NCBI GenBank assembly: GCA_024516035.1
Contig: CM044957.1
Coordinates: 1,446,613-1,510,612 of the forward strand
Length of the DNA stretch: 64,000 nucleotides
Source of the DNA: Bactericera cockerelli
Taxonomy: Eukaryota; Arthropoda; Insecta; Hemiptera; Triozidae
Direction of reading: 5' to 3'
Below the pieces are notes generated by a model. The model saw only the letters and a program-made list of their open reading frames with translations. It ran no database searches and was not told the DNA's origin. Shown here in pieces: positions 39,201-64,000 of this stretch (positions within the stretch are counted from its first letter, which is position 1; each line of letters starts with the position of its first letter). A program made the position numbers and the translations under genes.

Positions 39201-39351
39201 TCAGACGGGCGAGTTCTGCACGAGGCTGACCTTGCCGGGGGCGTACTTGCCGTCGAACACCACAGGGGCGGCGTAGGAGTACTCGTCCTGGTCCTCCGAG
39301 TTGCTGAGCAGGTGGTTCTCCACGTCCGATTTGGAGCGGCTGAGCCACCAT
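39201..39351 (-). CDS. ATP7: ATP7 terminal exon (cytosolic tail)
   Basis: Acceptor CCCCCAG before 39351; entry phase 2 matches the exon ending at 43807 (AA+A gives Lys). It encodes WWLSRSKSDVENHLLSNSED through YAAPVVFDGKYAPG to a C-terminus NSPV and TGA at 39201-39203. The acidic/dileucine HLLS and the last residues S-P-V fit trafficking signals of ATP7 tails (dileucine; class I PDZ ligand S/T-x-hydrophobic). Function of these signals here is inference. Confidence 0.9.
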
Positions 39352-39711
39352 CTGGGGGGAAGAAAATGAAAACGTTATTCTCGTAGGTGGTCTTTTTTCA
39401 AGGATTTTTTTTTTCGAACAAGGCGTTGTTTTAATTAATTGGTTGAACCCATGTCATTCAGAACCAGTATTGCTCGAAGTTGCTTCAAGAGCTCTTAGGG
39501 AGCTGTAGAGCTGAGTCTAAATTTTGCGTATTTTGTGTTGGGGAAAACCGATGCCAAGTCATTACTTAGGTTCTCGATATTGTTTATTAATTTCGCCCTT
39601 AGACTACTGCATTTTTAATTCGCCGTGCCTGGGATTCGAAGAGACGACCTCCAGGTTACTTCTAGGCCCGCCGCTTTATTGATCGAGCTACTGCTACACA
39701 TGCGGATTAAG

Positions 39712-40451
39712 TTATTTGTTATTAGGTTCATATTAGAAATCCAAATTCTTAGGTATATGTATGTAATATTATATAAAACTAGGATTCTTTAATTTAAATT
39801 TTCACTCACCGACTTAAGTTTCGCCTAACTCGTAGGCTTGATCACGATTACTGGACTGGTTAGTTTTAATGTTGCTGTTGCTGTGAAGATATAGGTTCTT
39901 TCTTATAGACCAGATATGGTAATGTGTCTATTATATCATTTAGATTCATATTTGTTTCTACAGATCGATGGATGTATATCTGTTCCTGGCACATGATTTC
40001 TCGGAACTTATTACCTTTATATAGGAGGTCTACTTTTGTTTTCTTAAGGTCGTGTTCATCATTAATGAGGTGGTCTGCATATTTCGATCTTCCTAGGGTG
40101 TTGTTTCTGGCAGCTGCAAGGTGTTCTTCAGTTCTTGTTTTAATGCTTCTACGGGTCATACCTACGTATTCTGCACCACATTCACATGTTAGTTTGTATA
40201 CACCACTACAATCTTCTTCTTTTATTTTGTCTTTTCTATTGAACAGTGAAGTTAGGTTTTTACTTTTAAATGCTGGTTTGTATCCATATTCTTTTATGAT
40301 ACTAGCTATAGGGTGTTCTAGGCTTTTTACAAATGGTAAACCTACATACTTAATGGTTTTGATATCTCTGGTGGTGTTAAATAAGTATTAAATTTTCGGT
40401 GAGTGAAAATTTAAATTAAAGAATCCTAGTTTTATATAATATTACATACAT
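39712..40451 (-). mobile_element. Penelope-like element fragment with inverted terminal repeats
   Basis: A 12-bp direct repeat ATGCGGATTAAG (39700-39711 and 40452-40463) encloses a 740-bp insert. Its ends carry a perfect inverted repeat of about 57 bp (39755-39812 and 40396-40452). On the left an extra tail of about 43 bp lies outside the repeat. The interior encodes a GIY-YIG endonuclease on the minus strand. Penelope-like elements have LTR-like repeats in direct or inverted arrangement, a short tail on one side and a GIY-YIG domain after the reverse transcriptase, so this fits a strongly 5'-truncated copy. Confidence 0.85.
39866..40390 (-). pseudogene. GIY-YIG endonuclease C-terminal part of Penelope-like pol
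   Basis: One open frame runs through TTRDIKTIKYVGLPFV, a linker, the CSGVYKLTCECGAEYVGMTR core (GIY as GVY, YIG as YVG), RRSIKTRTEEHL with the catalytic Arg, and a C-terminus ending SSQQQQH. Cys residues before the core match the CCHH-like insertion of Penelope endonucleases. It lacks the reverse transcriptase and is cut at its N-terminal side by the inverted repeat. The endonuclease itself appears undamaged. Confidence 0.85.
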
Positions 40452-40725
40452 ATGCGGATTAAGATAAGAATGAGAATTTTCAATTTGTAAGCATCGGTGG
40501 CAGGAAACTTTGTACGAACGCCTGAGAATTAGGTCGTTATGCAATGTGTAATGTTTAGTACGCAAACATTTAGAGACAGAGTTTTGTAGATTAAAAAAAA
40601 AAAAAAAAAAAAAAAAAACAATAAAACAAAACACATATAAACTATGTTTCGTGTTAATATAGGCCGGTTGGCTGGCGCTACTTGACGAACGCCCGCCCAC
40701 CAGCGAGCTTCATTTATCTTGTTGC

Positions 40726-40897
40726 CGCCTCCTTGTCTCAGTGGTTAAGAACATTGGTTGCTGACCCGGAGGTTGCGGGATCGAATCCCGGCCGGAGCGG
40801 ACCGAGTTTTTCCGTTTCCGGAATGGCATGGATGTAAAGTTAGAATGCCCTGAAGTAATACAAAAGCGGTTCCGGAGCACAACTATCTTTTTTTTAA
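40726..40897 (+). mobile_element. tRNA-derived SINE with target duplication
   Basis: A-box side CTCAGTGGTTAAGAACATTGG, B-box GCGGGATCGAATCCCGG, then body TTTTTCCGTTTCCGG and CCCTGAAGTAATACAAAAGCG and a T-rich end. TTATCTTG(G)TTGC occurs on both sides (about 40714 and 40898). Related minus-strand copies: 45640-45700 (tail) and 63290-63450. Confidence 0.85.
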
Positions 40898-40924
40898 TTA
40901 TCTTGGTTGCACATGATGTCATGT

Positions 40925-42035
40925 TAAAACAGAAAACTCAAAATCATTAGGATTTGAAGTTTTCTGACTTGGCTAACTACTCGGATAAAATACTATGTTC
41001 CATAATAATATGATAAATAATAATAATAAAAAAATAATATGTTCCAAAATTAAGCGGACAGTGAATGTGAATTGTGCAAGAACTCAGAAATGTTTCTAAT
41101 TTAATTTGTGAAGGTAATATGACCATTTAGTTGAAAGCGACGCTAAACCCAAATTAATAGAAAAAAATTGTCAAGAAAAATTCAAAATGTAGTTTTTTAT
41201 ATGAGGAAAAAATCATCGATTAGATCGGAAAATCGTCACTGTGGTATGGAAGAGAGTGGAAATTATGAATATTTCCAAAACGACATTAGATATTACTTAT
41301 TAGTATGGTATTACACCCCTCATTACAGAGTAGGTAATAGAAAACAGCAAAGTTGATTTTAAAAATATTAATTAATCTGAGATGGGATTAAAAAAAAAAA
41401 AAAAAAAACAGAAATAGAACTTACGATATTAAAAAAATGTAACTCTAAGAAAGCAATCTGCTACGGACAAATATATTGATGCACAAAAAAAAAGAAGGGG
41501 TTTTAAGGCTAGTTCTGTAGTTCGGAGAGAGACAAAGACAATTTTCAATTCAAAATATCGAATTAAAAAGGGATTAATGTTGAGAAAAATTAATGAGGAA
41601 GAAATAATTATTGCCAGACAGCAAAGAGGAGACTTGAAGAGATAAAGACAAGATGACACAGATACAGGGCAACTGCATCTGCAGTTAATGTCATCATTGA
41701 AAGATTTCTGTTCTGTCAAATCAAAATATGCGCATTCAAAAAACTAATTTATTTTGTTCTTTTTTCTCAGTTTGTTTATTTTTTGTTTGTTGTTAGTTTT
41801 TTGTTGAATTGTTTGTTAAGTTTCAGTTTTTTGTTCCTCGAAGGAAAAAGACAACAGGAAAATCCTCCCTCAGACAATAGAGGATGTTCTCCGAAGCAAA
41901 TCTATTTTTGTATTGGAATATAATTAATAATTTAAACAGGGTGGTTTGTGCGTGATAGAAATATTTGAAAAAATTACTGATTCTCTAGAACAGAATAAAA
42001 TATAAAACCTACGATCAAGCTGAAATCCCAAGAGG
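40925..42035. other. ATP7 intron sequence, nothing recognised
   Basis: AT-rich. A 5S-SINE end scrap (ATATGACCATTTAGTTGAAAGCGACGCTAAACCC) is at 41120-41155. No coding support. Confidence 0.5.
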
Positions 42036-42040
42036 GTTAA

Positions 42041-42340
42041 CCCTTTCACTGTACATCTATGAATTAGTTGGGAAAAAATTATGAACGATGCTTTTTTGAG
42101 TTTGTTAGAGTCCATAGATGATGTTTCCAAAAAAAAAAAAAAATCTTCAAAACTGAAAAATCTTTTGTTTACAAACGCAGTTCAAACCCTAGACTACACA
42201 GTTTTTACTGAGAAAATCAAGAGGGAAGAGAACAAAAAAAAAACAACTCCAAAAAGTACAGAAACAAAATCATAGAATGCAGCACTGGTATTTTCAAAAT
42301 CAATTGATGTCCCTGAGCAAGGACAAATTCAGTGAAAGGG
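42041..42340. mobile_element. piggyBac-like MITE, 300 bp
   Basis: TTAA at 42037-42040 and 42341-42344 flank termini CCCTTTCACTG and CAGTGAAAGGG. The interior has only a Lys-rich chance frame. Terminal sequence and TTAA duplication fit the piggyBac superfamily. Confidence 0.85.
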
Positions 42341-63020: not shown

Positions 63021-63043
63021 GATTCTATTCCGGCCGCACTTAC

Positions 63044-63207
63044 CTTGAGCTCCAGCTCCCCCTCCCCCGACCCGGCCTCATCCATCACCGCGGCCGGGAA
63101 CCCGAGCTCAGATATCGAGGCCGCTATCTCGGCCGGACTGATGAGGTCCCTGCTGTAGCGGATCTCCGCTTTGGCCGCCAGGAGCGCTACCAGCACGCTG
63201 TTGATGC
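63044..63207 (-). CDS. ATP7: ATP7 exon: second half of the penultimate metal-binding domain
   Basis: Acceptor CCCCCCAG before 63207, donor AAG^GTAAGT after 63044; phase 1 in, 0 out. It encodes GINSVLVALLAAKAEIRYSR, then LISPAEIAASISELGFPAAV and ELELK. Confidence 0.95.
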
Positions 63208-63289
63208 CTGGGGGGAGGAATGGAGGGACCAGAGACGTTGGAGCAGTGAGAGAAATGAAATTAGGGTTCGGTGGAAGAGATTGCCGCAG

Positions 63290-63450
63290 ACAAAAACTTT
63301 TTTTTTTAAAGGTAATTGTGCCCTGGAACCGCTTTCGTATTACTTCAGGGCACTTTTAAATGTACATCCATGCCCTTCTAGAAACGGATAAACTCGGTCG
63401 GAATTTTCCGCTCCGGCCGGAATTCGAACCCGCAATCTCCGGGGTCGGTA
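63290..63450 (-). mobile_element. tRNA-derived SINE, antisense (family of 40726)
   Basis: CCCTGGAACCGCTTTCGTAT TACTTCAGGGCA at the tail side and CCGGCCGGAATTCGAACCCG at the B-box side. Confidence 0.75.
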
Positions 63451-63596
63451 ATTAAATGTATGTACAAAATGTCTGTTTAGATTTGAAAATAAATAAGACC
63501 CAGCTTAGACTACTGAATGAAGGGAATTTTTAGTATCACCTCAGGAGTGAACAAGGTAATTTTTTATTCTATTCTAATAACTCCACCTAAACGCCT

Positions 63597-63690
63597 TCCC
63601 AGTATGTCAGTGGTAAAGGCGGCACTCTGTGATTCCTGAGGTCGCGTGTTCGAAACATGACAAGATATCCTCCCATTTGGGATTCTGATA
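63597..63690 (+). mobile_element. tRNA-derived SINE head (family of 8090)
   Basis: A-box GTCAGTGGTAAAGGCGGC, then GGTCGCGTGTTCGAAACATG and TATCCTCCCATTTGGG. The B-box side has lost a few bases. Confidence 0.7.
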
Positions 63691-63892
63691 TTGCTGTCAT
63701 AGCCGGAACTATTCTGTGATGACATTCAAATTCTCCAGCAATGGACGACATACGATATGACTAGAAAACTTCAGTTTATTCACTATTCTGTGTCTACCAA
63801 GCATTGGTCCAAATTTTTTGTCGGCTCGGGGAATTGAACGGGGAAAAAAAGGTTATTAGTTCAAAAAAATATTATTATTATTCAAACAGTAC

Positions 63893-64000
63893 CTTTTATT
63901 TTGAGACAATGTTTCTCTATGGCGGCCACACAGGACGCACAGGTCATGCCCTTGATATGCAGGAAGCACTTTTCCCCTTCTAACAGTGGAGATTCTATCC
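63893..64000 (-). CDS. ATP7: ATP7 exon: penultimate metal-binding domain, first half (cut by window)
   Basis: The donor AAAG^GTACTG follows 63893 (phase 1); the 5' part is outside the window. It encodes IESPLLEGEKCFLHIKGMTC ASCVAAIEKHCLKIK, with the GMTCASC copper site. Confidence 0.95.

What the first reader, a model, noticed from the sequence alone, without database searches (positions are those of the whole stretch)
39201..64000. Recurrent exon-border amplification in a single gene
Six of the visible ATP7 exon borders have extra copies of exon edge plus splice site: three as large arrays (47645, 51801, 54367) and three as single extra copies (45973, 43807, 61480). The exonuclease gene next door shows none. 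This suggests a local mechanism, such as slippage or R-loop-linked replication at GC-rich exon edges, or selection that keeps decoy sites. I know of no named system like this, so the claim of novelty is provisional.
Basis: inference. Interest (0 to 1): 0.88.

Follow-up and report, generated by a model that had tools for sequence, protein, structure and literature searches.

The report
Splice-site minisatellites ("mirages") in a psyllid
In the genome of an insect that is likely a psyllid, a number of exon ends carry extra tandem copies of the exon edge together with its splice site; such arrays are known from amphioxus under the name "mirages", and they likely arise by local DNA duplication and are predicted to be ignored by the splicing machinery.

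Summary
In detail: all six named borders carry copies of exon edge plus splice site, five clear, one (61480) old and diverged. Two parts of the reading fail. It is not a single gene: 10 of 44 ATP7 borders (4 of 10 outside the window) and 14 of 89 myosin borders are affected (18 before removals), but 0 of 8 in the exonuclease gene, 1 of 22 in other P-type ATPases, 0 of 9 in one kinesin. And it has a name: "mirages" of amphioxus (PMC3087553, PMC3902484). This genome is not amphioxus; its ATP7 is 85% identical to psyllid proteins. Array ends lie at donors five times more often than at intron points (14 of 83 against 3.5%); acceptors are not significantly raised. The frame closes with exon-proximal sites; 54 of 55 ATP7 donor copies would break it. 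Donor GTs are not conserved beyond neighbouring bases, so nothing points to selected decoys. Best reading: donor-biased local tandem duplication, silent because splicing likely uses the exon-proximal site.

The parts
39167..64000 (-). Copper-transporting P-type ATPase (ATP7) gene; 17 exons from 63207 down to 39167, plus exon X6 (63893-64039) that straddles the window end; five more exons lie beyond the window
46562..47663 (-). Array of about 35-bp units at the donor 47645: exon end GTGGTGCTGATGCGG plus donor GTGAGT plus G-rich spacer; 29 copies counting the true site, 27 with a perfect 16-base core
51202..51824 (-). Array at the donor 51801; 48-bp units (variants 28 and 32) holding up to 24 nt of exon plus the donor GTGAGT
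48679..48827 (-). Remaining part of the 51801 array, cut off by the inserted inverted-repeat element 48828-51208
54367..57149 (-). Array at the acceptor 54367; 42/50-bp units; 8 array copies still hold TTGCCAG|GACAT, most have lost it
45873..46045 (-). 83-bp tandem duplication spanning the donor 45973 (about 66 nt of exon plus 17 nt of intron), with a TGCCAG microhomology at its ends (read by eye)
43759..43818 (-). 24-bp duplication spanning the donor 43807
61167..61480 (-). Diverged copy (about 61167-61198) of the donor border 61480, 287 bp into the intron, sharing CAGGT.CG.GG.GCCGCATGCGGCAA
30968..34273 (-). Egalitarian-like 3'-5' exonuclease gene used as a negative neighbour; 0 of 8 borders (four exons) with copies

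Best explanation
These are mirage-type minisatellites: tandem copies of a stretch that spans an exon-intron border, likely made by local tandem duplication at donor borders, likely expanded by unequal exchange, and predicted to stay silent because splicing would use the exon-proximal site. Shown here: the copies hold contiguous exon and intron DNA, so they are not inserted spliced RNA; they lie on the intron side of an intact border; the frame closes with the exon-proximal sites, and 54 of 55 ATP7 donor copies would break it; they occur in ATP7 and in several myosin genes; array ends cluster at donor borders. Inferred: a first duplication of roughly 20-155 bp by slippage or a microhomology-mediated event (the 83-bp case has TGCCAG at both ends); tolerance whenever the duplicated piece includes the whole donor, because the first copy then still presents a complete exon end and donor; later growth by unequal exchange. 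Why donor borders are favoured is not known; the orientation bias points to transcription or splicing and not to the GTRAGT motif as such.
For: Anatomy and reading frame. Border bias: 8 of 18 ATP7 arrays against 1.4 or 1.9 expected; array ends at 14 of 83 donors against 3.45% of 3424 intron points, binomial p 9e-7, ratio over loci 4.8 with bootstrap range 2.0-8.3. Not one gene. Orientation: in the gene-oriented ATP7 and myosin loci 13 array units hold a sense GTRAGT and 2 an antisense one, about 2.4 expected per strand; the 13 include both halves of the 51801 array and one array shared by two gene copies. No preferential conservation of GT in copies. Turnover: between two myosin gene copies (listed aligned blocks 79-98% identical, the longest of one locus pair 96-97%) one donor array is shared with 5 and 4 further copies and one acceptor array (L020) is absent from the other copy (L022). 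23 of 28 nearest-copy distances are not multiples of 3. Precedent: amphioxus mirages.
Against: By plain coverage the effect is weaker: 19 of 78 donors against 77 of 543 deep-intron points (p 0.019), and acceptors, 9 of 85 (8 without a misplaced border) against 89 of 590, are not raised. A first per-position test showed no enrichment. It is uneven: 0 of 20 donors in the three smaller sets. The 16-base core of the 47645 array is perfect in 27 of 29 copies while its spacer varies, which selection could also explain. One copy there (+72) would leave the frame open. No RNA data: use of the exon-proximal site is inferred. Most myosin borders were placed by score; one of the 15 hits looked at again was misplaced and two picks were one repeat unit off.
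Confidence: 0.72

Rival explanations
1. Uniform minisatellite formation plus tolerance: tandem duplication strikes everywhere in this repeat-rich genome, exon-internal events are removed by selection, and border-spanning events are simply the tolerated remainder, with no border preference.
For: Array number per kb is the same inside ATP7 (0.64) as in window 1-39000 (0.62), with 0.33 beyond its 5' end; coverage at acceptors does not exceed that of introns, and donor coverage is only modestly higher.
Against: Tolerance alone cannot raise the density of array ends at donors above the intron level, yet it is about five-fold higher and 8 of 18 ATP7 arrays span a border.
Confidence: 0.2
2. Selected decoys or buffers: arrays of U1-binding donor copies are kept because they bind U1 snRNP in the intron and guard against premature polyadenylation or tune splicing.
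For: Donor cores are nearly identical in the 47645 array, 26 of 28 aligned copies with an intact GT; in ATP7 and myosins donors are hit more often than acceptors, 16 of 63 against 7 of 70 (p 0.023).
Against: GT columns are no better conserved than most neighbouring exon columns; acceptor arrays exist; most units of the 54367 array lost the site; arrays differ between close gene copies.
Confidence: 0.06
3. Assembly artefact: false tandem copies from read or polishing errors.
For: The assembly has near-identical or equally scoring gene pairs that may be unmerged haplotypes.
Against: Copies differ from one another, an inverted-repeat element with TA flanks sits inside the 51801 array, and two myosin gene copies share a 94-bp array. 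Copy numbers may still be inexact.
Confidence: 0.02

Closest known systems
"Mirages" of amphioxus (Adh3, globins Gb6 and Gb9, PGBD5, troponin C)
   Same: [quoted passage not shown] both 5' and 3' borders hit; unit lengths reported there 10-160 bp against roughly 20-155 bp here; many copies keep AG/GT; the normal product uses the authentic site (PMC3087553, PMC3902484; passages seen).
   Different: Here in an insect, at 25 of 172 sampled borders, with a measured donor excess and one array of 29 copies. No transcript evidence here, whereas RT-PCR is reported for amphioxus globins. The original Adh3 paper was not held.
Intron gain by tandem duplication of AGGT-containing exon (Rogers model, as cited in PMC3087553)
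   Same: Tandem duplication that includes splice signals; the amphioxus authors propose mirages as a route to new introns.
   Different: Here the arrays sit at borders whose protein is continuous with that of another psyllid; no new intron is shown.
Introner elements (recalled, from no call)
   Same: Many introns carrying repeated sequence with splice sites.
   Different: Here each array repeats its own exon edge; no shared element sequence was seen among the border units listed.

Membership tests
mirages (exon-intron border minisatellites) | tandem repeats that span an exon-intron border | tested here: met
mirages (exon-intron border minisatellites) | both donor and acceptor borders can be duplicated | tested here: met
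   in ATP7 and myosins, after removing three probable alternative-exon duplicates, one misplaced acceptor and the diverged 61480 copy: donors 16 of 63, acceptors 7 of 70
mirages (exon-intron border minisatellites) | many copies keep AG/GT signals | tested here: met
   GT columns 97-98% identical over 145 donor copies; in the 54367 acceptor array most units lost the site
mirages (exon-intron border minisatellites) | regular splicing is not disturbed | not testable with these tools
   no RNA data; frame and psyllid protein support the exon-proximal sites
mirages (exon-intron border minisatellites) | length instability between alleles or cells | tested here: inconclusive
   two close gene copies differ in copy number and in presence of one border array; no population or somatic data
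introner elements | the same element sequence at many introns | tested here: not met
   units listed each match their own exon edge; a genome-wide search with one unit did not complete
intron gain by tandem duplication | a recently gained intron bounded by the duplicates | not tested
   intron positions of related psyllids were not available

The most novel reading that the evidence does not exclude
Donor ends of exons are hot spots of tandem duplication in this genome, through a process tied to transcription or splicing, so that introns fill with up to about 30 near-identical copies of a working 5' splice site which the spliceosome must ignore by position alone: a natural array experiment on splice-site choice, and a standing supply of raw material for new introns and exons.
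Probability: 0.35. Interest if true: 0.82.

Novelty: new member of a known kind. Interest (0 to 1): 0.62.

Why it matters
In the papers found here mirages are reported only from amphioxus. A second, distant animal lineage where about one in seven sampled exon borders carries one would show that border duplication is a general mutational mode and not a cephalochordate oddity. The arrays hold many copies of the same exon end and donor, so sequence strength alone cannot tell the true site from the copies; RNA reads from this insect would directly test whether splice-site choice is set by position or order of transcription. Their differences between close gene copies also give a system for watching the first step of proposed intron gain.

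Tried and rejected
A per-position 40-mer self-similarity test showed no enrichment at borders because arrays fill the introns; it was followed by array-level and array-end tests. The first shuffled null was faulty, since the kept 60-nt flank still held near copies; it was redone. Amphioxus as host was considered from the literature and rejected: no GFP-family match (weak because the control genomes gave none either) and 85% ATP7 identity to psyllids. Species: the assembly size (565 Mb) is near the 567 Mb given for Bactericera cockerelli in PMC12203342 (passages); not tested further. GC content, GC skew and site strength do not separate borders with and without arrays (its acceptor set still held the misplaced L023 border). 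Dropped from the 18 myosin hits: L028 (shift 899), L029 (shift 1106) and L034 (shift 1363), which look like alternative-exon duplicates, and the L023 acceptor, whose array ends in the intron short of the true acceptor, which lies 74 nt downstream of the picked site; kept are the weak L032 hit (one diverged copy at 384) and two hits whose pick was one repeat unit off (L025, L018). The figures were made before L023 was dropped; without it the acceptor array-end count is 5 of 89 (p 0.19) instead of 6 of 89 (p 0.09). In the ATPase set 18 loci gave 22 borders from 14 of them; two (L047, L048) appear to have been read on the wrong strand and gave none. Distance from contig ends: 8 of 23 myosin borders within 3 Mb of an end against 6 of 66 elsewhere (p 0.007), post hoc. 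Literature searches for the phenomenon outside amphioxus; no insect or psyllid case appeared in those listings (one search listed only 15 of 384). The earthworm metallothionein paper (PMC12783039, passages) describes intronic minisatellites and exon-4 duplications absent from the transcript; border arrays were not among the passages seen. A genome-wide look for one array unit did not complete.
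Full report
What is there. The minus strand from 63207 to 39167 encodes 17 exons of a copper-transporting P-type ATPase (ATP7). Spliced at consensus sites they form one open frame of 997 aa. The best protein matches are psyllids, Diaphorina citri and Cacopsylla melanoneura, at 85% identity over the whole query, against 61-71% for the other 118 proteins listed. The genome, 565 Mb in 1032 contigs, is therefore most likely a psyllid; its size is near the 567 Mb given for Bactericera cockerelli in PMC12203342 (passages), which I did not test. Translating the window and 20 kb beyond it against P0001 gave six further exons and showed no array-derived insert at the borders.

The borders. 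At 47645, 29 copies (the true site counted) of a unit of about 35 bp repeat the last bases of the exon and the donor GTGAGT, 27 of them with a perfect 16-base core. At 51801 a mostly 48-bp unit does the same; the array was later split by an inverted-repeat element at 48828-51208 flanked by TA. At 54367 the acceptor side is repeated, although most of the 42-bp units have lost the splice site and 8 keep it. At 45973 and 43807 there is one extra copy each. At 61480 there is one old copy 287 bp away; its palindromic core occurs only at these two places in the window, 0.02 expected.

A test outside the flagged part. Of the 10 ATP7 borders tested beyond the window, 4 also carry arrays: X1 donor 23 bp, X2 acceptor 21 bp, X3 donor 111 bp, X5 donor 31 bp. 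In all, 10 of 44 ATP7 borders score at least 14 (in fact 18 or more) in an ungapped test that needs a score of at least 4 on each side; the others score 9 or less. With intron flanks replaced by shuffled sequence, 1 of 1630 tests reached 14.

Not one gene. I located myosin-head exons genome-wide (77 matches) and fetched stretches that hold 60 of them. 18 of 89 predicted borders have a copy. Three look like alternative-exon duplicates, and one acceptor (L023) proved misplaced: its array ends in the intron, short of the true acceptor 74 nt downstream of the picked site. The other 14 sit beside coding sequence, most of it plainly myosin, for example an acceptor with 11 further copies of about 113 bp (L019), a donor with 13 of about 77 bp (L018), a donor with a 20-bp unit matching at 27 shifts (L031), and an acceptor with 9 upstream copies (L025, where the true border is the last copy). 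Two of the 14 are the same donor in two gene copies (L021, L023) and are not independent. Three smaller sets are nearly empty: other P-type ATPases 1 of 22, the egalitarian-like exonuclease gene 0 of 8, one kinesin 0 of 9. In total 25 of 172, counting the diverged 61480 copy. Two further myosin arrays that look like border arrays (L026, L033) were seen and are not counted.

Is the border special? Coverage alone says only a little: at donors 19 of 78 have a copy within 1200 bp against 77 of 543 deep-intron points (p 0.019); acceptors 9 of 85 against 89 of 590 are not raised (without the kinesin and before the removals above). But introns are filled by few, long arrays, so the number of arrays and the place of their ends is the fairer measure. 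In ATP7, 8 of 18 arrays span a border against 1.4 or 1.9 expected when arrays are placed at random with 70 or 110 nt of exon overlap allowed (0 and 1 of 5000 trials reached 8). Over all five gene sets, array ends lie at 14 of 83 donors against 3.45% of 3424 intron points (p 9e-7; ratio 4.8, bootstrap over loci 2.0-8.3), and at 6 of 89 acceptors (p 0.09), 5 of 89 (p 0.19) without the misplaced one. All 14 donors are in ATP7 (7 of 22) and the myosins (7 of 41). Sense GTRAGT occurs in 13 array units and antisense in 2, with about 2.4 expected per strand, so the motif itself is unlikely to be the attractor; the 13 are not all independent.

How it likely works. A duplication that spans a donor and contains the whole donor leaves a complete exon end and donor as its first copy, so it is neutral if splicing takes the exon-proximal site; later growth gives the array. 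In ATP7, 54 of 55 downstream donor copies found by the scan would shift the frame or bring a stop if used, tested to 60 nt into the next exon; one copy of the 47645 array (+72) would not. Their use must then be rare or the gene would suffer; this is inference, as no RNA data are at hand. The GT of 145 donor copies is conserved at 97-98%, no better than most neighbouring exon columns, so there is no sign that decoys are kept by selection. Arrays differ between close gene copies: two myosin gene copies on C1 share one donor array with 5 and 4 further copies, while an acceptor array in L020 is absent from L022. GC content and skew do not mark the affected borders. What singles out donors, and some genes over others, remains open; a higher rate within 3 Mb of contig ends (8 of 23 against 6 of 66, p 0.007) is a post hoc hint.

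What is known. The same structure is named "mirages" in amphioxus: tandem repeats spanning exon-intron borders in Adh3 and globin genes, with units of 10-160 bp and normal splicing suggested by RT-PCR, also reported for troponin C and PGBD5, with an unclear mechanism and a proposed role in intron gain (PMC3087553 and PMC3902484, passages seen). The original Adh3 paper was not held. My searches showed no insect case (listings only, one of them capped), which does not prove absence. I file this as a new member of a known kind, in a distant lineage, with a measured donor bias as the new element.

Noticed in passing
window 48828-51208: Element with near-perfect terminal inverted repeats (CAGGGTGGACCAAAAAAACG...) flanked by TA, inserted inside one copy of the 51801 donor array; similar translations near 37200-37600 suggest a relative of it there.
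   Followed up: partly
window 29200-30647 (-): Fumarase gene without visible introns whose two overlapping frames (270 and 278 aa) imply a frameshift near 29835-30036, either a pseudogene or a base error.
   Followed up: partly
G000, 16 places such as C2:19474558, C12:21594770 (L009-L012): Part of mitochondrial COX1 (model positions about 296-358) recurs at 16 places, as if a mitochondrial fragment had become a dispersed repeat.
   Followed up: no
L013:2346-2580: One metal-binding (HMA) domain of this ATP7 lacks the CxxC motif that the Diaphorina protein has there.
   Followed up: no
G000 C3:29.0/29.2 Mb, C1:53.9/54.0 Mb, C6:25.1/25.9 Mb, C1:63.2/64.7 Mb: Pairs of similar or equally scoring gene loci, either unmerged haplotypes or segmental duplications; only the first two pairs were aligned.
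   Followed up: partly
L055 (C3:24422976-24423189): A 57-bp array in a kinesin intron starts about 8 nt after the donor 24423197 and its unit holds GGTAAAGG, a border array without enough exon to be counted.
   Followed up: partly
L023 (C1:53.94 Mb): A 41-bp array ends shortly before a myosin acceptor and offers several acceptor-like AGs upstream of the true one; the other gene copy (L021) lacks it.
   Followed up: partly
window 44190-45285 and 60754-61089: Two large ATP7 intron arrays (16-bp TTCAAGGTCATTCTAT type; GGAATG-type) that do not touch an exon border.
   Followed up: no
myosin loci L018, L019, L024, L025, L030, L031: Border arrays were more frequent within 3 Mb of contig ends (8 of 23 against 6 of 66); post hoc.
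   Followed up: partly
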